A stretch of 64,000 bases of DNA from Gammaproteobacteria bacterium (lineage in GTDB: Bacteria > Pseudomonadota > Gammaproteobacteria > Nevskiales > Nevskiaceae): positions 1 through 64,000 of the forward strand of contig JAPLSA010000010.1 of assembly GCA_026398815.1 (NCBI GenBank). Reading direction: 5' to 3'. Of this stretch, positions 14,364 to 24,039 are shown in pieces (positions within the stretch are counted from its first letter, which is position 1; each line of letters starts with the position of its first letter). The translations under genes were made by a program, and so were the position numbers. The notes beneath the pieces are model-generated. The model worked only from the letters and a program-made list of their open reading frames with translations. It made no database searches and had not been told where the DNA came from.

Positions 14364-15442
14364 GGCAGGCGGTTCCGCAGCGCCAGGGTCAGGGTCACGA
14401 CGCGGCGCATCCGGCCGTCGCTGAACGGCCCGACGCTGACGCCGAGCAGGTCGAAGCGGCGGCTGTCGGTGAAGCCGGCGCGATCGCGGGTGCCGGAGAA
14501 CAGCAGCGCCACCCGCACGGCGACCACGCGCCGCCAGGCGGCGGTGTCGGCGAACTGGTCGGCGCGGCGGTAGGCGTCGGCCACGCCGTCGCCATCGCTG
14601 TCCTCGCCGTAGAGCACCTGCAGGTTCTCGACGCCGGCAGCGATTTCGCGGCTGTCGCTGTCGACGCGCCGCCACAGCGCCGGCCCGCTGCCCTGGGCGC
14701 TGTCGGCGATGTAGAAGCTGACCACGCCCATGCGGAACAGCTGCGCGCCGGCGGCGAACGCGCGGTCGAGATCGTTGCTCCAGTTGCCGGGGCTGCTGCC
14801 GGTGGCCGCATGCGCCAGCGTGGCGATGCTGGCGCTGCCGCCGGACGGCAGGGCGACGCTGGTTACGCCGGTGCCGCTGATCTGGAAGATCGCCGCGCCG
14901 CCGCAGTCGCTGGCCATCACCACAGCGCCGGCCGACAGCGGCGCCGGTGTGATCAGGTTGATGCCGAGGTCGGCGCTGGTGGTGGCCATGTTGCGGACCG
15001 TGAACAGCTCGTTGTCGATCGGGCCGCGCACGGTCAGCACGTCGGTGCCGGCGCGCGGCGCCGGGAAGCCGCTCGGCAGGCCCGGCGACCAGCCGCCGCC
15101 GACCGCCTCGAAACCTTCGGCGTAGCGCTCGTAGCGGTAGCGGAAATCGGTGTGGGTGAACGCCGTGCGCGTGCCGCCGCTGGTCGCCGGGTTCGGATTC
15201 AGGGTGTTGCGCACCGCGCCGGTATCGCTGAGGCAGCCCCGGTAGCCGGCCATCCGCACGTCCTGCGCGAGGCGGGCGCTGACATAGCGGATCGCTTCCT
15301 GGCGATCGCCGAGCGCCTGCGTGGTCTGCGCGGTGCGGGCGGTCGACAGGAACACCCGGTAGATGCCGGCCAGCAGCAGCAGGCCGATGACCATCGCGAT
15401 CATCACCTCGACCAGCGAGAGGCCTGCCTGCCGGGGCGTCAC
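14360..15442 (-). CDS. pilW: Minor pilin PilW
   Basis: 360-residue pseudopilin-like protein. The leader MTPRQAG precedes LSLVEVMIAMVIGLLLLAGI, with Glu at +5 of the mature helix. The rest carries the PilW pattern: VSARLAQDVRMAGYRGC near residue 55-70 and a long beta-rich C-terminal domain with scattered Asp-rich loops (EDSDGDGVADAYRR). It initiates tip assembly together with PilV, PilX and FimT/FimU. ATGA overlaps link it to both neighbours. Confidence 0.92.
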   Translation of the reverse strand: MTPRQAGLSLVEVMIAMVIGLLLLAGIYRVFLSTARTAQTTQALGDRQEAIRYVSARLAQDVRMAGYRGCLSDTGAVRNTLNPNPATSGGTRTAFTHTDFRYRYERYAEGFEAVGGGWSPGLPSGFPAPRAGTDVLTVRGPIDNELFTVRNMATTSADLGINLITPAPLSAGAVVMASDCGGAAIFQISGTGVTSVALPSGGSASIATLAHAATGSSPGNWSNDLDRAFAAGAQLFRMGVVSFYIADSAQGSGPALWRRVDSDSREIAAGVENLQVLYGEDSDGDGVADAYRRADQFADTAAWRRVVAVRVALLFSGTRDRAGFTDSRRFDLLGVSVGPFSDGRMRRVVTLTLALRNRLP

Positions 15443-15891
15443 AGCTGGGTCCGCAGGCTGACGGTGGCCGGCGCGGCGGCATCGGCCACGCCGATGTCGC
15501 GCCAGCGCACGGTGATGGTCACCACCTGCGCCTCGACCAGCACCTGGCCGTCGCCGTCCGGCAGCGTCGCATCGAGTGCGGCCTTCCAGCTGGCCAGGTC
15601 CTGGCTGGCCAGCGTGCTGCCGCTCGGCGCCTGCGCGAACGGCAGGTTGTAGAGCCCGCCGATCGCCTGCGCGCGGTTGGCGCGCATCCGGTCGAGCAGG
15701 TCGTAGGACTGGCCGACCGCCTCGGTGCGCAGCGCGGCGCTGCTGCTGCGGCCCAGGCTCAGCGCCTGCAGCGAGGCCAGGGTCAGAAGGCCGATCGACA
15801 CCAGCACGGTGGCGACCAGTACCTCGACCAGGCTGACGCCGCGCTGGCCGAGCGCGCCACGGCGCGGCTCAGCAGTGCGCGGATTCGACAT
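15439..15891 (-). CDS. pilV: Minor pilin PilV
   Basis: 150 residues. The leader ends QRG, then VSLVEVLVATVLVSIGLLTL, with Glu at +5. The LDRMRANRAQAIGG stretch is characteristic of PilV. It overlaps the end of fimT by 23 bases and the start of pilW by ATGA. It functions in the minor pilin priming complex of the type IV pilus. Confidence 0.92.
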   Translation of the reverse strand: MSNPRTAEPRRGALGQRGVSLVEVLVATVLVSIGLLTLASLQALSLGRSSSAALRTEAVGQSYDLLDRMRANRAQAIGGLYNLPFAQAPSGSTLASQDLASWKAALDATLPDGDGQVLVEAQVVTITVRWRDIGVADAAAPATVSLRTQL

Positions 15892-16444
15892 GCGCCTGGC
15901 CCTGCAGACTCAGCGACAGGTTGCGCCGCTGGCCGGCCGCACAGGCCTGCGGGACCAGCGAGAACTGTGGGCTGCTGCCGCCATCGGCGAGAAAGCCGGT
16001 CGGCAGATAGGTGACGGTGTTGACGGTCGCGGTCAGCGCATCGCCGCTGGCCAGCGGGCCGAACACGCGCAGCACTTCGCGGCTGCCGGTGGCGTTGCCG
16101 GCCTCGTCGAGCACGCTGCGGAACACGATCCAGCCCTGGCTCCAGGTGGTGGCCGTGCTGCAGCGGTAGCGGTCGGCCGGCGCGCTGGCGGCGGCGTTCT
16201 CGAGGTAGGGACACAGCGACACCTCGCGGGCGCTGCTGACGGCCTCGCTGCGGGCGTAGTTCAGCGCGGCGACCAGTGTGTTGACCTGGCCGGCGGCGCG
16301 GTTGCTGGTGACGAAGCCGTTCAGCGCCGGCACGCCGACCGTGGTGGTCACCGCGACCACGGCGACCGTGGTCAGCATCTCGATCAGCGTGAAGCCGCGC
16401 GCACGGCGGATGGCGGCGGCGCGGCGGGCGAACGGCAGGGACAT
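15869..16444 (-). CDS. fimT: Minor pilin FimT/FimU (GspH-like)
   Basis: 191 residues. The leader has several Arg and ends RARG, then FTLIEMLTTVAVVAVTTTVG, a classical prepilin peptidase site with Glu at +5. The following VTSNRAAGQVNTLVAALNYARSEA stretch, with its Asn-Arg and ALNYARSEA helix, is the GspH/FimT signature. The C-terminal domain has paired cysteines. It is the first gene of the leftward fimT-pilV-pilW-pilX-pilY1-pilE operon. The promoter should lie in the 262 bases upstream. Confidence 0.92.
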   Translation of the reverse strand: MSLPFARRAAAIRRARGFTLIEMLTTVAVVAVTTTVGVPALNGFVTSNRAAGQVNTLVAALNYARSEAVSSAREVSLCPYLENAAASAPADRYRCSTATTWSQGWIVFRSVLDEAGNATGSREVLRVFGPLASGDALTATVNTVTYLPTGFLADGGSSPQFSLVPQACAAGQRRNLSLSLQGQAHVESAHC

Positions 16445-17237: not shown

Positions 17238-18128
17238 ATGACGCCCACCCGAATCGTTACCCGCGGCGATGTCCGCCTTGCCGTCTACGAATGGGGCTCC
17301 GCCGCCGGTGGCAAGCCCACCCTGGTGCTGGTCCACGGCTATCCGGATTCCGCGCGGGTCTGGGATGCCGTGGCGGAACGGCTGGCCGGCCAGTTCCATG
17401 TGGTGAGCTACGACGTGCGCGGCGCCGGCCAGTCGAGCGCCCCGAGCCGCGTCCGCGACTACCGCATCCTGGAACTGATGGGCGATCTCGCCGCCGTCTT
17501 CGATGCCGTCGCACCCGGCCGCAAGATTCACCTGGTCGGCCACGACTGGGGTTCGATCCAGAGCTGGGAAAGCGTCACCCTGTCGCCGATGCGCGACCGC
17601 ATCGCCAGCTACACCAGCATCAGCGGGCCGAGCCTGGACCATGTCGGCTACTGGCTGCGCGCCCACGCCCGGCCGGGCTGGAAGGGCCAGCAGCTGCTCC
17701 GGCAGTTGGCCCGCAGCTGGTACATCGCCGCCTTCCAGCTGCCGCTGTTCGCGCCGGCGGCGTGGCGGTTCGGCGTCGGCCGCTCTTGGTCGAAGCTGGT
17801 CCGGGCGATGGAAGGCACGGTCGTCGACGCCAGCCCGACGCAGACCGCCGACGGCCGCAACGGCATCAACCTGTACCGCGCCAACGTGCTGCCGCGCCTG
17901 CTGCGGCCGGAGCCGCGCCACGCGATCGCGCCGGTGCAGCTGATCATTCCGATGCGCGACCGCTTCGTCAGCCCGGAGCTGTTCGAAGGGCTGTCGCGCT
18001 GGGTGCCGGTGCTGCGCCGCCGCGCCATTGACGCTGGCCACTGGCTGCTGCTGAGCCATCCGGACAAGGTCGCCAGCTGCATCGGCGAGTGGGCCGCCGA
18101 ACACGCGGGGCGCGCACCGGGCCGCTAG
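17238..18128 (+). CDS. Alpha/beta hydrolase, epoxide-hydrolase-like
   Basis: 296 residues. The oxyanion-hole motif HGYPDS is at residues 33-38. The nucleophile elbow is GHDWGS, placing Asp103 where serine hydrolases have Ser. An Asp nucleophile is typical of epoxide hydrolases and haloalkane dehalogenases. A cap domain spans about 130-220, and the catalytic His is probably in DAGHWLLLSHP near residue 265. The exact substrate is unknown. Similar domains also occur fused to short-chain dehydrogenases, but no fusion is present here. The stop codon shares a CTAG with the stop of the convergent DUF3299 gene. Confidence 0.85.
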   Translation: MTPTRIVTRGDVRLAVYEWGSAAGGKPTLVLVHGYPDSARVWDAVAERLAGQFHVVSYDVRGAGQSSAPSRVRDYRILELMGDLAAVFDAVAPGRKIHLVGHDWGSIQSWESVTLSPMRDRIASYTSISGPSLDHVGYWLRAHARPGWKGQQLLRQLARSWYIAAFQLPLFAPAAWRFGVGRSWSKLVRAMEGTVVDASPTQTADGRNGINLYRANVLPRLLRPEPRHAIAPVQLIIPMRDRFVSPELFEGLSRWVPVLRRRAIDAGHWLLLSHPDKVASCIGEWAAEHAGRAPGR

Positions 18129-19117
18129 CCGCGCGACAGCAGCCGGGCGTTCTCGAGCCGGTAGATCAGGCCGTCGGCGCTGCGCGCGACCAGCCGCAGC
18201 CGGCCTTCGATGACCACCGCGTCAAGGCTGGTCTCGATGCCGTTGCCGGCCTGCACGTCGACCACCGATGTCGGCCCGCCGGGCGGATGGAAGAGGCAGG
18301 CCGGCGGGTTCGCGGTCAGCAGGAAGTGGCGCTGGGTCAGCGCCGATTCCAGCGGCAGCATGAAGCCGGCCAGCCGCACCGGCTTGCCTTCCATCGCCTG
18401 CAGCGCCGCCGGGAACCGCGCCGTGACGCCGTCGCGGCCGTAGTCCAGCGGCGTATCGATCAGCAGATCCCAGGGCGTGACGCCGCGCAGGTCAAGCTCG
18501 CCGAACCATTCGCGGCTCGGCGGCCGCTGCACGTCCAGCACCAGCCGCGTGCTGACGCCGGCCGCCGTGACGGTCAGCGTGTCGCGGCCGGGATGGCGCA
18601 CCAGGACGCGGAAGTCGATGTAGCCGCTGGCGTCGGTATGGTCGGTCATCACCAGCACCGGATTGCCGCGCGCCGACTGCACGCTCAGCGGCTGGCCGGC
18701 GATCGGCCGCTGCGCCTCGGTCTGCAGCTGCGCGGACAGATAGCTGACATCGCCGACATAGGCCGGCACGGTCAGCAGCCCGTCCTGCGTTTCGCCGAAC
18801 TCCGAGCTGAGCAGGATCACCGGCGGCGTGTTGTCCTCGACGAGCTTGCCGTTCCGGTAGCGGACCATCGGCCGCGCCGGGCTGGTGGCAACGCTGCTGT
18901 CGGTCGCCGCTGCGGCCGGATCGGTGTCGGGCCCGCCGTCCGGAGACGGCTGCCCGGTCTGCGGCGGCATCGCGACGTTCTCCGCCGGGTCCGTTGCAGG
19001 CGCGGCGCTGGCGGGCGTCGCGCGGTGGCGGGTGGTGCCGAACCAGAAACCGGCAGCGGCGACGGCGACCGCCGCCGCAACGGCAAGCCGACGACTCCGG
19101 GACAGTTGGCGGCTCAT
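18125..19117 (-). CDS. DUF3299-containing periplasmic protein, third gene of the zinc-locus ABC operon
   Basis: 330 residues. A basic N-terminus and one hydrophobic segment (about 9-27) form a signal anchor or signal peptide, followed by a Pro/Ala/Asp-rich linker (about 30-85). The middle looks like an Ig-like beta domain (about 90-200). The C-terminal DUF3299 domain includes GFMLPLE, then FLLTANPPACLFHPPGGP and ends near residue 325. Its start overlaps the permease stop as ATGA, so it is translated with the ABC transporter. DUF3299 genes accompany zinc-starvation ABC operons in other gammaproteobacteria (recalled, not checked). A periplasmic accessory role in zinc handling is inference. Confidence 0.85.
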   Translation of the reverse strand: MSRQLSRSRRLAVAAAVAVAAAGFWFGTTRHRATPASAAPATDPAENVAMPPQTGQPSPDGGPDTDPAAAATDSSVATSPARPMVRYRNGKLVEDNTPPVILLSSEFGETQDGLLTVPAYVGDVSYLSAQLQTEAQRPIAGQPLSVQSARGNPVLVMTDHTDASGYIDFRVLVRHPGRDTLTVTAAGVSTRLVLDVQRPPSREWFGELDLRGVTPWDLLIDTPLDYGRDGVTARFPAALQAMEGKPVRLAGFMLPLESALTQRHFLLTANPPACLFHPPGGPTSVVDVQAGNGIETSLDAVVIEGRLRLVARSADGLIYRLENARLLSRG

Positions 19118-20370
19118 CGGCTGCGGGTCCGCGCCAGCGTCGCGGCGACATCGCTGCGGTAGACCTGCCAGGCCGGGCCGAGCACCGCGAGCGTCGCCAG
19201 CAGCAGCGGCAGCGCAGCCAGCAGCGCTTCACCGGTCGCCGGCTGCAGCGGATCCAGCGCCAGCGAACTGGCCGCCTGCGAGCCGGCCGCGAGCAGGCCG
19301 AGCCCGGCGTGACCGAGCGCAAGGCCGAGGACGGTCGCCAGCAGCGCTGGCAAAGCCGCCGCCAGCCACAGCAGCCACAGGATCGCGCTGCGGCGGGCGC
19401 CGAGGCTGCGGAACAGCGCCAGGTCGTGCTGGCGTTCGTCGAGCGTCTGCACCATCGCCACCAGCAGCGACAGCGCCGAGGCCGCGAGCAGCAAGGCCGC
19501 CAGCGCCTTCAGCGCGCCGATGCCGACGCCGATCAGGCCGAGCAGCCGGGCGGTCTCGATCGCCGGCACCGCCGCCAGGTGATCGCTGCGCTCGTTGATC
19601 TCGCGCGGCAACGACAGCGCGGCGATCGGGCTGCGGTAGCGGATCAGCGCGGCGGTCACGCGATGGCTGCCGGCCGGGTCGCCGTCGTGATGGTCGTCGT
19701 GCTCGTCGTCGTCATCGGCTGCGGCAGGTGCGGCCGTCGCGGCCGGCCGGCGCATCGCCGGTGCGGCGTGCAGCGCCCAGATGCTGTCGAGGCCGGTCAG
19801 CACCAGCCGGTCGACGACGCTGCCGGTGCGCGCCAGCACGCCGACCACGCGGTACGGCGCGCCGCCGTGTGCGCGGCCGCTGCCGAGGCCGTGCACGCCG
19901 TGAAAGGCGTCGCCGATCGCGATGCCGCTGGCCGCGACATCGGCGCCGATCACCGCCTCCATCGGCGCCTGCCAGGCCCGGCCGTCGGCAAGACGCGCGC
20001 CGTAGTGGGTGATCAGCGCCGGCGTGCTGCCGACGATCCGGTAGCCGCGCAGGTTGTCGCCGAGGGCGATCGGAATCGCTTCCGCCACGCGCGGATCGCG
20101 GGCGAGACGGTCGACCTCGTCCAGCGGCAGCGTGCCGGTGGGAACGTCGAGGTGGTGGACCGCCGACAGGATCAGCTGCAGCGGGCTGCCTTTGGCGCCG
20201 ACCACGGCGTCGATGCCGCGGCTGTTGCGATCGAGCCGGTCGCCGACTTGCGCGGTGACGCCGAGCAGCACCACGAGCAGTGCCAGACCGGACGCCATCA
20301 GCAGCACGTGCAGCGCCTGCGCGTACCGGCGGTGACGCAGGTCGGCGAGCGCCAGGCCAAGCAGGGTCAT
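19114..20370 (-). CDS. FtsX/MacB-type ABC transporter permease with Asp/His-rich loop
   Basis: 418-residue inner-membrane permease. One hydrophobic helix lies at about 20-42, then a large extracytoplasmic domain (about 45-280), then three helices near 285-310, 335-360 and 380-405: the four-helix MacB/FtsX arrangement. The QTLDERQHDLALFRSLGARR motif between helices 2 and 3 is the family coupling segment. At about residues 217-230 the periplasmic domain carries an uninterrupted Asp/Glu/His run (DDDDEHDDHHDGD), which should bind Zn2+ or another divalent ion. ATGA overlaps tie it to the ATPase upstream and the DUF3299 gene downstream. Confidence 0.92.
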   Translation of the reverse strand: MTLLGLALADLRHRRYAQALHVLLMASGLALLVVLLGVTAQVGDRLDRNSRGIDAVVGAKGSPLQLILSAVHHLDVPTGTLPLDEVDRLARDPRVAEAIPIALGDNLRGYRIVGSTPALITHYGARLADGRAWQAPMEAVIGADVAASGIAIGDAFHGVHGLGSGRAHGGAPYRVVGVLARTGSVVDRLVLTGLDSIWALHAAPAMRRPAATAAPAAADDDDEHDDHHDGDPAGSHRVTAALIRYRSPIAALSLPREINERSDHLAAVPAIETARLLGLIGVGIGALKALAALLLAASALSLLVAMVQTLDERQHDLALFRSLGARRSAILWLLWLAAALPALLATVLGLALGHAGLGLLAAGSQAASSLALDPLQPATGEALLAALPLLLATLAVLGPAWQVYRSDVAATLARTRSR

Positions 20371-21026
20371 GGCTGCGCGCCGCCGAGCTTCGGCAGACGC
20401 CGCTGCCGGGCGATGCGCGCCCGTGCGCGCTGGTCGTGCGTGGCGATCAGCAGCGCCGCGTGGCAGCGCGCCGCCTGCGCGAGCAGCAGGTCGAGCACCC
20501 GGGCGGCGTTGTCGTCGTCGAGATGCGCGGTCGGCTCGTCGGCCAGGATCAGCCCCGGCCCGTTGACCACCGCCCGGGCGATGGCGACCCGCTGCGCTTC
20601 GCCGCCGCTGAGCGCGGCCGGCCGCTGGCCGGCGAGGCGGCCGAGATCAAGCGCCGCCAGCGTCGCCGCGATCGCCTGCGGATCGGGCGCCAGGCCGGCG
20701 AAATGGCGCGCGGCGCCGAGCTGTGCCGCGACGGTCAGCGACGGCACCAGATGCAGATGCTGGAACACGAAGCCGATCCGCCGGCCGCGCCAGGCGTCGC
20801 TGGCGGCCGGCGACAGCGCGGCGAGTGGCTGGCCATCGATCACGACCTCGCCGTGCTGCGGCGCCAGCAGGCCGGCGGCGATCGCCAGCAAGGTCGACTT
20901 GCCGCTGCCGGACGGGCCGAGCAGCAGGCAGGCCTCGCCGGCCGCGAGCTGCAGGGCGTCAAGCAGGATCTCGCCGGCGCCGGGCGGCCGGTGGCGGATG
21001 GCGGTCAGGGACAGGCGCAGGGTCAC
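20367..21026 (-). CDS. ABC transporter ATP-binding protein, first gene of divergent zinc operon
   Basis: 219-residue ATPase of the LolD/MacB class. Walker A is LGPSGSGKST, the Q-loop is FVFQHLHL, the signature is LSGGEAQRVAIARA, Walker B is LILADEPTAHLDDD, and the H-loop is IATHD. No ATG fits, so I use the GTG at 21026, which starts the canonical first strand (TLRLSLTAIRH). It energises the FtsX-type permease encoded next. The start lies 120 bases from a pair of Zur-like boxes, so repression by zinc is likely. This class of transporter can act mechanically or in export as well as import, so direction is not settled by sequence. Confidence 0.92.
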   Translation of the reverse strand: MTLRLSLTAIRHRPPGAGEILLDALQLAAGEACLLLGPSGSGKSTLLAIAAGLLAPQHGEVVIDGQPLAALSPAASDAWRGRRIGFVFQHLHLVPSLTVAAQLGAARHFAGLAPDPQAIAATLAALDLGRLAGQRPAALSGGEAQRVAIARAVVNGPGLILADEPTAHLDDDNAARVLDLLLAQAARCHAALLIATHDQRARARIARQRRLPKLGGAQP

Positions 21027-21146
21027 GGGCGGCGGGATGGGCGGAACGCGGGGTGGGGCGTGATATCGGCCAGCAGGTGCGGCCGTCCGGAAACGGCGGC
21101 GGACAGCGTTACGCGGATGTGGTCGGGACAACGCGGGTCGAATCGA

Positions 21147-21178
21147 TGTTACTGTATAACAGATGTTACTGTATAACA
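21147..21178. promoter_or_regulatory. Tandem Zur-type operator between divergent zinc operons
   Basis: Two identical 15-bp near-palindromes, TGTTACTGTATAACA, occupy 21147-21161 and 21164-21178, a 17-base period. Each has TGTTA and TAACA half-sites around a 5-base centre, like the core of the gammaproteobacterial Zur box. The sequence is strikingly AT-rich against its GC-rich surroundings and contains TATAAC and TATACA elements that could serve as -10 boxes in the two directions. It lies 31 bases before the COG0523 GTPase start and 120 bases from the ABC ATPase start, and a zur gene is about 1.35 kb away. Confidence 0.85.
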
Positions 21179-21209
21179 AAACCCGTCTCATCACAGGACT
21201 GCTGCCGCC

Positions 21210-22466
<1,257 letters not shown>

Positions 22467-22531
22467 GCTCTGGCAGGACGCCGCAGCGGAGGCGATGCGA
22501 CACTGCCGGCGTCCTGCCGCCATCACCTGCC

Positions 22532-23068
22532 ATGCCCAGAGCCGCGAAACCCGTCATGCCCGTCGCGCCCGCCGTCCCGACTCTCGGCCGGCTGAAGCCG
22601 GCGCGCGGGCAGGGTGCTGCAGCCCGCGCGGCGGCGGCGAACTGCTGTCCCGGCCACCCGGCCGACGCTGCGCTGCTGGCCGAGCTGCCGGACCTCGCAC
22701 GCCAGGCCTACGCCCAGCTGCTGGCGTCGCCGCAGGCGCGCACCGCGTATGAGCTGATCGAGACGCTGCAGCCGCAGGTGGCCCAGCGCATCTATCCGCA
22801 GACCATCTACCGCACGCTCGCCCAGCTCACCCAGCACGGGCTGGTGCACCGCATCGCCAGCACCAATGCCTACCGCGCCTGCAGCAGGCCGGGCACGGTT
22901 CACGACGGCATCCACTTCCTGTGCACCCGCTGCGGGGCGGTCGACGAAGCGGTGGATCCCGGCATCAACGCGCTGCTCAACCGCCACGCCGACGCGCACC
23001 GTTTCGCGATCGATCAGCGGGTGATCGAGATCAGCGGCATCTGCGCCCGCTGCAGCGCCGGCAGCTGA
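22532..23068 (+). CDS. zur: Fur-family zinc uptake regulator Zur
   Basis: 178-residue Fur-superfamily repressor. The winged-helix DNA-binding region includes LASPQARTAYELIETLQP and YPQTIYRTLAQLTQHGLVHRI. The dimerisation domain has HDGIHFLCTRCGAVDE, and two CxxC pairs (Cys131/Cys134 and Cys171/Cys174) form the structural Zn site typical of Zur. An extra N-terminal tail of about 45 residues is Pro/Ala-rich and contains a CC pair. The start at 22532 is the best-supported of two nearby ATGs (the other at 22556). It follows the GTPase gene closely and may be cotranscribed from the Zur boxes, so it could be self-regulated. Confidence 0.9.
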   Translation: MPRAAKPVMPVAPAVPTLGRLKPARGQGAAARAAAANCCPGHPADAALLAELPDLARQAYAQLLASPQARTAYELIETLQPQVAQRIYPQTIYRTLAQLTQHGLVHRIASTNAYRACSRPGTVHDGIHFLCTRCGAVDEAVDPGINALLNRHADAHRFAIDQRVIEISGICARCSAGS

Positions 23069-23127
23069 ACGGCGCTCTGGCGCGAAGCCGCCGCTACACT
23101 GCGGCCCGGCCATTTTTGACGACGCGC

Positions 23128-24039
23128 ATGCTCCGGATCGGCATCGACCTCGGCGGCACCAAGATCGAAGGCATCGTGCTGCGCGGCGCGACCGAGATCA
23201 TCGCTCGCCGGCGCATCGCCACGCCGGCCGGCGATTACCCAGCCACCGTGGCGGCGGTCGCGGCACTGGTGGCCGATCTGGAACGCGAGGTCGGCGCGCA
23301 GCGGCTGCCGGTCGGCATCGGCCATCCGGGCGCGATCTCGCCGTTCAGCGGCCTGATCAAGAACGCCAATTCCACCTGCCTCAACGAGCGGCCGCTGAAG
23401 GCCGATCTGGAAGCCGCGCTGGGGCGTGCGCTGCGGATGGCCAACGACGCCGACTGCCTGGCCCTGAGCGAGGCGCAGGACGACGGCGCGGCGGCCGGCG
23501 CGGCCTGCGTGTTCGCAGTGATCCTCGGCACCGGAGTCGGCGGCGGCATCGTCATCGACGGCCGGCTCAGAAGCGGGCCGAACGCGATTGCCGGCGAATG
23601 GGGCCACAACCCGATGCCGTGGCCGCGCGTCGACTGGCACGAGGTGCCCGGCCCGCTCGGCTGGGACGGCCGCTTGGGGGCGATCGAGGACTGGCTGTCC
23701 GGGCCGGCGCTGGCGCGCGACCATCGGGACCTGACCGGCGTGGCCTGGAGCGGCGAGCAGATCGTCGCGGCAGCAGCGGCAGGCGATGCCGCCTGCAGCG
23801 CCACGCTGGCGCGCTACCAGGAGCGGCTGGCCCGCGCGCTGGCCAGCGTCATCAACCTGCTCGATCCGGATGTCATCGTGCTCGGCGGCGGCCTGAGCCG
23901 GATCGAACGCCTTTACGAGACGGTGCCGGCGCTGTGGGCCCGCTGGGTGTTCAGCGACCAGGTCGTGACCCGGCTGCTGCCGGCCCGCCACGGCGACGCC
24001 AGCGGCGTGCGCGGCGCGGCCTGGCTGTGGCCCGGATGA
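23128..24039 (+). CDS. ROK-family sugar kinase lacking the zinc-finger cysteines
   Basis: 303 residues. It has the N-terminal phosphate motif GIDLGGTKIEG (residues 4-14), the GHPGAISPFSG and NANSTCLNERPL sugar-site blocks typical of fructokinase/Mak, DAD at the catalytic site (MANDADCLAL), and the GTGVGGGIV adenosine loop. In ROK kinases His plus three Cys (CxCGxxGCxE) hold a structural zinc. Here His160 of GEWGHN is kept, but the aligned GWDGRLGAIEDWLSG has Gly178, Asp180 and Ala185 in place of the three Cys. The neighbouring residues are fully conserved. It lies 59 bases after zur, behind a possible -10 (TACACT). The sugar substrate is probably fructose or another hexose. Confidence 0.88.
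   Translation: MLRIGIDLGGTKIEGIVLRGATEIIARRRIATPAGDYPATVAAVAALVADLEREVGAQRLPVGIGHPGAISPFSGLIKNANSTCLNERPLKADLEAALGRALRMANDADCLALSEAQDDGAAAGAACVFAVILGTGVGGGIVIDGRLRSGPNAIAGEWGHNPMPWPRVDWHEVPGPLGWDGRLGAIEDWLSGPALARDHRDLTGVAWSGEQIVAAAAAGDAACSATLARYQERLARALASVINLLDPDVIVLGGGLSRIERLYETVPALWARWVFSDQVVTRLLPARHGDASGVRGAAWLWPG

What the first reader, a model, noticed from the sequence alone, without database searches (positions are those of the whole stretch)
18125..24039. Zur-controlled zinc locus built around divergent ABC/DUF3299 and GTPase-Zur-ROK operons
Seen: two identical Zur-like boxes lie between a leftward ATPase-permease-DUF3299 operon with ATGA overlaps and a rightward COG0523 GTPase, Zur and ROK kinase. 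From memory, a similar ABC/DUF3299 set is induced by low zinc in Pseudomonas (PA4063-PA4066) and described as ZrgABCDE in Vibrio. The arrangement here lacks a recognisable DUF2796 (ZrgA-type) binding protein. Inference: this may be a reduced version of that system in which the permease's own Asp/His loop captures zinc.
Basis: partly seen in the sequence, partly recalled or inferred. Interest (0 to 1): 0.72.

Follow-up and report, generated by a model that had tools for sequence, protein, structure and literature searches.

The report
Zinc-starvation transport locus without ZrgA
This stretch of DNA looks like a zinc-starvation gene cluster whose membrane pump belongs to a known family, but to a widespread branch that lacks the family's usual zinc-catching protein and often carries a metal-binding-looking loop on the pump itself.

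Summary
Two identical 15-bp palindromes lie between a leftward ATPase/permease/DUF3299 operon and a rightward ZigA GTPase and Zur; they are the only perfect copies found in the 4.30-Mb genome. In 10 relatives, 16 of 21 perfect copies precede this operon, zigA, zur, a ZIP gene, a zinc-type ABC ATPase or a ZnuD-like receptor. They are very probably Zur operators.

ZrgA (DUF2796) was not found in the genome, nor ZnuA, ZnuB or ZIP with the models used. It is not an isolated reduced system: none of the 80 best-scoring named relatives shows ZrgA nearby. In a class sample, 7 of 10 permeases from genomes without ZrgA have a loop with 3 or more His; 0 of 25 with ZrgA do. Here DUF3299 also carries an invasin-type Ig-like region.

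The permease fold is MacB/LolE/HrtB-like, so direction stays open. ROK is not conserved. 11 of 18 congeners show no match to DUF3299, ZnuB or ZIP, so importer arguments from absence are weak.

The parts
18125..19117 (-). Ig-like/DUF3299 periplasmic protein (330 aa), N-terminally anchored by one predicted helix; many relatives have a lipobox-like Cys by eye
   Evidence: Pfam DUF3299 E 1.6e-9; profile matches PA4066 structure 4hsp E 1.1e-5 and invasin 1cwv E 8.5e-5; fold match 4hsp E 8.7e-5
18179..18403 (-). DUF3299 domain (residues 239-313), with the motif ACLFHPPGGP
18530..18769 (-). Ig-like (Big_1/invasin-type) region, about residues 117-196
   Evidence: Big_1 below cut-off for this protein (E 0.0059) but matched at E <= 0.01 in 12 of 15 family members; profile to invasin/intimin
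19114..20370 (-). MacB-type ABC permease (418 aa, four transmembrane helices in the model)
   Evidence: MacB_PCD + FtsX; model pLDDT 86.5; best fold match MacB 5gko E 1.9e-15
19660..19767 (-). Asp/His-rich loop of the permease (residues 202-237; 4 His and 9 Asp/Glu counted in the aligned segment)
   Evidence: disordered in the model, residues 204-230 pLDDT < 50
20367..21026 (-). ABC ATPase; start GTG 21026 is my choice, the open frame runs further up
   Evidence: ABC_tran E 7.6e-31; LolD/FtsE-like below cut-off; ATGA overlap
21147..21161 (.). Zur box 1
21164..21178 (.). Zur box 2, 17 bp from box 1
21210..22466 (+). ZigA-type COG0523 GTPase
   Evidence: NCBIfam NF038288 607.6 bits, cut-off 600
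22532..23068 (+). Zur (Fur family)
   Evidence: FUR E 8.2e-11; 4mtd E 7.5e-17, with the aligned His, Cys, His, Glu and the two C-x2-C pairs present in the alignment
23128..24039 (+). ROK-family sugar kinase, probably a passenger
   Evidence: ROK E 2.4e-66; not matched in 14 relative stretches

Best explanation
A Zur-repressed zinc-starvation locus. With zinc scarce, Zur leaves the two boxes and frees two divergent operons: ZigA plus Zur (metallochaperone GTPase and autoregulation), and a MacB-fold ABC machine with an Ig-like/DUF3299 periplasmic partner. This machine belongs to the ZrgBC-E / PA4064-4066 kind but to its ZrgA-less branch. I infer that the Asp/His loop of the permease's periplasmic domain, perhaps with the DUF3299 partner held close by the Ig-like region, binds zinc (or a mis-bound metal) in the periplasm, in place of a free ZrgA, and that ATP hydrolysis moves the periplasmic domain to pass the metal on. 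Shown by computation: genes, boxes, conservation, absence of ZrgA, loop contrast, fold type. Inferred: binding of Zur, zinc as substrate, the loop's role, and transport direction. My odds: Zur-controlled zinc locus 0.93; loop as the metal-binding part in place of ZrgA 0.5; net help to zinc import 0.5, export of a metal or chelate 0.3, other mechanical work 0.2.
For: Boxes unique in the genome. Boxes in front of the ATPase: perfect in 6 of 17 loci, 11 or more of 12 positions in 9 of 17; in front of zigA: perfect in 4 of 6; in front of zur: perfect in 3 of 4. In 10 relatives, 16 of 21 perfect boxes precede zinc-type genes: 10 at this cluster, 2 at other zigA genes, 1 at ZIP, 1 at an AztA/ZnuC-like ATPase beside an ABC-3 permease, 2 in tandem at a ZnuD-like receptor. 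C. crescentus Zur sites shown by reporter and gel shift include TGTTACTTTATAACA, one base from this box (PMC4176598, passages). Loop: 12 of 13 family permeases have 3 or more His; 0 of 16 permeases beside ZrgA do; class sample 7 of 10 without ZrgA against 0 of 25 with it, Fisher p 1.8e-5, not corrected for kinship. One permease inside the ZrgA-type clade whose genome shows no ZrgA (G144, L198) has 9 His in its loop. Vibrio zrg and PA4063-4066 are zinc/Zur-controlled (PMC9817125, PMC11481552; passages).
Against: Loop contrast lies mostly between two clades. 35 of 80 named ZrgA-less loops have fewer than 3 His, 6 have none; L026 of the same family has none; G206, a one-contig genome, has neither ZrgA nor a His loop. 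G144's gene starts at a contig end, so ZrgA may be missing only from the assembly. All top fold matches are MacB/LolE/HrtB-type, none an importer. PA4063-4066 has been argued to export pyochelin-cobalt (PMC11481552). ZnuB/ABC-3 matches occur in 5 of 14 family genomes with DUF3299 and 18 of 44 without, so no complementary pattern. 11 of 18 genomes of the genus match none of DUF3299, ABC-3, ZIP. 5 of 17 ATPase upstreams score only 8 of 12, and G028 has no perfect box at all. The reversed pattern gives 10 places against 21 in the ten genomes: placement, not number, is the evidence.
Confidence: 0.6

Rival explanations
1. The ABC machine is an exporter or extractor (MacB/LolCDE/HrtBA-like) made under zinc starvation that removes a chelate, cobalt or another wrongly taken-up metal, or handles a lipoprotein; the loop senses or strips metal rather than feeding zinc to the cell.
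For: Fold matches: MacB 5gko E 1.9e-15, LolE, HrtB, FtsX, BceAB. PA4065 deletion raised zinc demand and cobalt content, read as export (PMC11481552, abstract, passages and first third of the Discussion). No metallophore genes were looked for here.
Against: V. cholerae zrgABC and zrgA mutants grow worse under zinc limitation in a znu mutant, read as import (PMC9820375, passages). No ZnuABC or ZIP was matched in this genome, so some other zinc entry route is needed.
Confidence: 0.3
2. The Asp/His loop has no special role: acidic, low-complexity insertions are a drifting trait of this permease clade, and ZrgA is an addition of one gammaproteobacterial lineage.
For: Within the ZrgA-less branch the label '3 or more His' changes often (12 changes over 77 rows) and several loops have none. 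Loops are disordered in the model.
Against: Loops of ZrgA-less permeases are consistently Asp/Glu-rich (means 11.9 and 10.9 against 3.8 beside ZrgA); 12 changes is far below the shuffled mean of 26.0; one likely gain of a 9-His loop inside the ZrgA-type clade.
Confidence: 0.3
3. The boxes serve only the zigA-zur operon; the ABC operon is constitutive or under another control.
For: Boxes sit 48 bp from zigA but about 100-120 bp from the ATPase start; 8 of 17 ATPase upstreams score below 11 of 12.
Against: Where the ATPase operon is not divergent from zigA, boxes still lie right before it, for example L025, L031, L026, L028, L029.
Confidence: 0.07

Closest known systems
Vibrio ZrgABCDE (V. cholerae, V. 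parahaemolyticus)
   Same: Split ATPase and MacB-like permease, DUF3299 protein (ZrgE), Zur control (PMC9817125, PMC9820375; passages)
   Different: No ZrgA found in the genome; permease of another clade with an Asp/His loop; Ig-like region on the DUF3299 protein; no ZrgD (DUF2607) seen in the window, though two same-genus relatives have a small DUF2946-like gene in that place
Pseudomonas aeruginosa PA4063-PA4066
   Same: Same pair of ABC genes and DUF3299 protein; PA4066 (4hsp) is the best solved match of the DUF3299 domain; zinc-repressed (PMC11481552)
   Different: PA4063 (ZrgA-type) missing here; DUF3299 motif is CLFHPPGGP here and CIHxPPPPxN in the ZrgA-type loci examined
ZrgA-less ATPase/permease/DUF3299 loci in Bacteroidota, Betaproteobacteria, Caulobacteraceae and others (loci L086-L165; no published name known to me)
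   Same: No ZrgA in 0 of 80 held stretches, DUF3299-type gene in 76 of 80, COG0523 gene in 21 of 80, often Asp/Glu/His-rich loop
   Different: DUF3299 proteins there are mostly 144-219 aa without an Ig-like region; only L128 (Big_1 E 0.0015) and L159 (by eye) resemble the fused form
C. crescentus znuGHI Zur target
   Same: Zur-repressed ABC transporter genes with the same operator sequence (PMC4176598, passages)
   Different: Described there as ABC-2 type; homology to this system was not tested here

Membership tests
Zur regulon locus | Zur-type palindrome at the promoter | tested here: met
Zur regulon locus | Zur protein binds it and zinc represses transcription | not testable with these tools
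   Needs gel shift and expression assay
Zur regulon locus | Zur protein of the right family encoded | tested here: met
   Best solved relatives are Zur 4mtd and 7dh7; two FUR-family genes in the genome, the other scoring as a typical Fur-family member
ZrgABCDE / PA4063-4066 system | Separate ABC ATPase and MacB-like permease | tested here: met
ZrgABCDE / PA4063-4066 system | DUF3299 protein (ZrgE/PA4066) | tested here: met
ZrgABCDE / PA4063-4066 system | ZrgA (DUF2796, PF10986) zinc-binding protein | tested here: not met
   0 matches in the genome; the model scores over cut-off in 31 of 274 class genomes
ZrgABCDE / PA4063-4066 system | Contributes to growth under zinc limitation | not testable with these tools
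   Phenotype needed
ZnuABC | ABC-3 permease (PF00950) and ZnuA (PF01297) | tested here: not met
   0 matches in the genome; controls matched in 13 and 11 of 14
ZigA COG0523 GTPase | NCBIfam NF038288 over cut-off | tested here: met
   607.6 against 600 bits
MacAB-TolC tripartite pump | MacB fused to its ATPase, MacA partner | tested here: not met
   ATPase and permease are separate genes; no MacA-like gene among the six genes scanned. A MacA elsewhere in the genome was not sought

The most novel reading that the evidence does not exclude
A MacB-fold ABC machine that works in zinc acquisition without any free binding protein: the metal-catching element is built into the permease as an Asp/His loop and is backed by a tethered Ig-like/DUF3299 partner. 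ZrgA and the loop are two alternative solutions to the same step, and the loop solution is the widespread one across phyla.
Probability: 0.33. Interest if true: 0.72.

Novelty: new variant of a known kind. Interest (0 to 1): 0.5.

Why it matters
Whether Zrg/PA4063-4066 systems import zinc or export something is disputed, and ZrgA has been taken as the core zinc-binding part. A branch that has the ABC pair and DUF3299 protein without ZrgA, often with a metal-binding-looking loop on the permease, makes a direct test possible: delete the loop, graft it onto a ZrgA-dependent permease in a laboratory strain, and ask whether ZrgA becomes dispensable. It also points to many uncharacterised zinc-starvation candidates in Bacteroidota and Proteobacteria that are now annotated only as FtsX-like permease and DUF3299.

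Tried and rejected
Mutual exclusion with ZnuABC was tried as evidence for import and rejected: ABC-3 matches at E <= 0.001 in 5 of 14 family genomes with DUF3299 and 18 of 44 without. 'The only importer of the genome' was considered and given little weight: 11 of 18 genomes of the genus show no match at E <= 0.001 to DUF3299, ABC-3 or ZIP. ROK as a functional part was rejected. A ZrgA substitute in the gap before the ATPase was looked for: L022 and L023 have a small DUF2946-like gene (weak), L201 a 118-aa His-rich frame with 30 His; the window has no room for one. A consensus promoter over the boxes was not found. znuGHI of Caulobacter as the same system was considered and left open. The weak box at C24:4402 in the own genome was read: neighbours are not zinc genes by eye; C29:94955 was not read. 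The home-made ZrgA model rests on 8 rows, at least one of which seems to be an antisense reading; it still matched 20 of 20 ZrgA stretches (8 of them from training genomes) and nothing at E <= 10 in the window and 14 family stretches; its best score in five further stretches was E 0.06 in L203. In the class sample 5 of 31 genomes with ZrgA over cut-off had no permease match at E <= 1e-20, which I did not follow up; the loop of one of 26 ZrgA-bearing permease genomes (G067) was not measured.
Full report
Observation. The six genes and the two boxes are present at the stated places. The boxes are identical, 17 bp apart, and with up to 3 mismatches nothing else in the window resembles them; 0 of 100 shuffles had two. 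In the whole genome (4,303,171 bases, 32 contigs, completeness 95.6) only these two fit the palindrome perfectly. Both gene joints in the leftward operon are ATGA.

Are the boxes Zur operators? Three lines say yes. (1) Zur is encoded two genes away; its best solved relatives are E. coli Zur 4mtd (E 7.5e-17) and 7dh7 (E 3.2e-14), with matching His, Cys, His and Glu positions in the printed alignment; that these are the regulatory zinc ligands is recalled, not from a call. (2) Phylogenetic footprinting: in 250 bp before the ATPase, a perfect palindrome occurs in 6 of 17 loci and 11 or more of 12 positions in 9 of 17; before zigA 4 of 6 are perfect; before zur 3 of 4. Eight of 17 ATPase upstreams score below 11; some of those operons may start further up (for example L022, box at 2341; L030 and L032, box at zigA). 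(3) I scanned 10 of the 13 relatives with DUF3299 for perfect palindromes: 21 distinct places in 9 genomes, none in G028. Ten lie at this cluster, two before other zigA genes, one before a ZIP gene, one before an AztA/ZnuC-like ATPase, two in tandem before a ZnuD-like receptor; two precede small membrane proteins without a family match, and three precede an MMPL protein, an S10 peptidase and nothing clear. The reversed control pattern has 10 places in the same genomes, so the position next to zinc genes, not the number, carries the argument. A published Caulobacter Zur site, TGTTACTTTATAACA, differs by one base (PMC4176598, passages).

No ZrgA. PF10986 has no match in the genome. The 14 control genomes of that tool hold none either, so I tested the model on 274 genomes of the class, where 31 pass the cut-off. 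Genes of ZnuA, the ABC-3 permease and ZIP were also not matched in this genome; the ZIP model may miss distant members.

Relatives. In the bacterial family, 14 of 58 genomes have DUF3299, 3 of 18 in the genus. I took 14 stretches from the 13 other genomes: 12 show the ATPase and 13 the permease; L024 is cut by the contig end and L035 has DUF3299 alone; Zur lies near in 8. All 15 DUF3299 proteins aligned have a long N-terminal part; Big_1 matches 12 of 15 at E <= 0.01 and DUF3299 15 of 15. The profile of the 15 matches PA4066 (4hsp, E 1.1e-5) and invasin (1cwv, E 8.5e-5) in separate regions. The model of the window protein is good in the DUF3299 part, moderate in the Ig-like part, poor before it (mean pLDDT 70.1), and its best fold match is 4hsp.

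Across bacteria. ZrgA was found in 0 of 80 held stretches, a DUF3299-type gene in 76, a COG0523 gene in 21. Being the best 80 for a ZrgA-less query, they are not an unbiased sample. In the even sample of the class, 36 of 274 genomes have the permease: 6 of the window's type, none with ZrgA in the genome, and 30 of the other type, 26 with ZrgA. Of the 4 exceptions, 3 sit at contig ends; the fourth, G206, is a one-contig genome with a divergent permease.

The loop. Aligned to window permease residues 202-237, the loop has 3 or more His in 12 of 13 family permeases, 0 of 16 beside ZrgA, and 45 of 80 named ZrgA-less ones; Asp plus Glu average 11.9, 3.8 and 10.9. In the class sample, 7 of 10 genomes without ZrgA and 0 of 25 measured genomes with ZrgA reach 3 His, Fisher p 1.8e-5 without correction for kinship. 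On a tree of 77 permeases (33 of the 80 named ones used, loop columns removed) the ZrgA-type permeases group together; the label needs 12 changes against 26.0 in shuffles, and L198 (G144, no ZrgA matched, 9 His) lies inside the ZrgA-type group. The tool warned of long branches. So loop and ZrgA are anti-associated, but mainly between two clades, with one possible independent case that a contig end leaves unsure.

Mechanism. The permease model (pLDDT 86.5) matches MacB best (5gko, E 1.9e-15), then other MacB-superfamily members such as LolE, HrtB, FtsX. The loop lies in the periplasmic domain and is disordered in the model. From established knowledge (recalled), that superfamily does extrusion or mechanotransmission. 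The published Vibrio work reads the system as import with ZrgA as binding protein (PMC9820375, passages); the Pseudomonas work reads it as export of pyochelin-cobalt and says homologues of PA4063 and PA4066 are invariably with the ABC pair (PMC11481552; abstract, passages, first third of the Discussion). My data do not contradict that sentence but show the reverse is not true: the ABC pair and DUF3299 protein are common without ZrgA. I favour a zinc-binding loop working in periplasmic zinc handling, with direction open.

Novelty. Searches for DUF3299 with zinc, PA4063/PA4066, znuGHI, Zur regulon with FtsX/COG0523, and zrgA/zrgB (open-licence library only) listed no paper on ZrgA-less systems, the loop or an Ig-like/DUF3299 fusion that I could see from titles, abstract beginnings and the passages opened. 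I call it a new variant of a known kind.

Noticed in passing
L198:1-990 (G144): Permease of the ZrgA-type clade with a 63-residue loop holding 9 His, beside a plain DUF3299 gene, in a genome with no ZrgA match; the gene starts at a contig end.
   Followed up: partly
L022:2412-2741, L023:1682-1966: Small His/Cys-containing gene, weakly DUF2946-like, between the box region and the ATPase, in the place where Vibrio has zrgD.
   Followed up: partly
L201:5142-5897: ArsR-type regulator and a 118-aa frame with 30 His just before the ATPase gene.
   Followed up: partly
L026:1-1893: Two consecutive Ig-like/DUF3299 genes and the one family permease without a His loop.
   Followed up: no
L222:3077-5234 (G031): ZnuD-like TonB receptor gene behind two tandem Zur-type boxes 16 bp apart, similar in layout to the window's pair.
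   Followed up: partly
L223:3155-3853 (G031), L226:3064-3693 (G032): Small membrane proteins behind Zur-type boxes with HSLPIG and HALADGA motifs, ZIP-like by eye, yet with no Pfam or NCBIfam match; possible distant zinc transporters.
   Followed up: partly
L220, L221 (G021): Two further zigA genes, each behind a box and divergent from a large TolB/tricorn-like protease gene (by eye).
   Followed up: no
G206 (L196:6731-9075): One-contig genome with a very divergent permease, ATPase and DUF3299-like gene in another order, and no ZrgA match.
   Followed up: partly
window 15439-16444: Type IV prepilin-like genes (by eye from the N-terminal GxSLVE/GFTLIE motifs), leftward.
   Followed up: no
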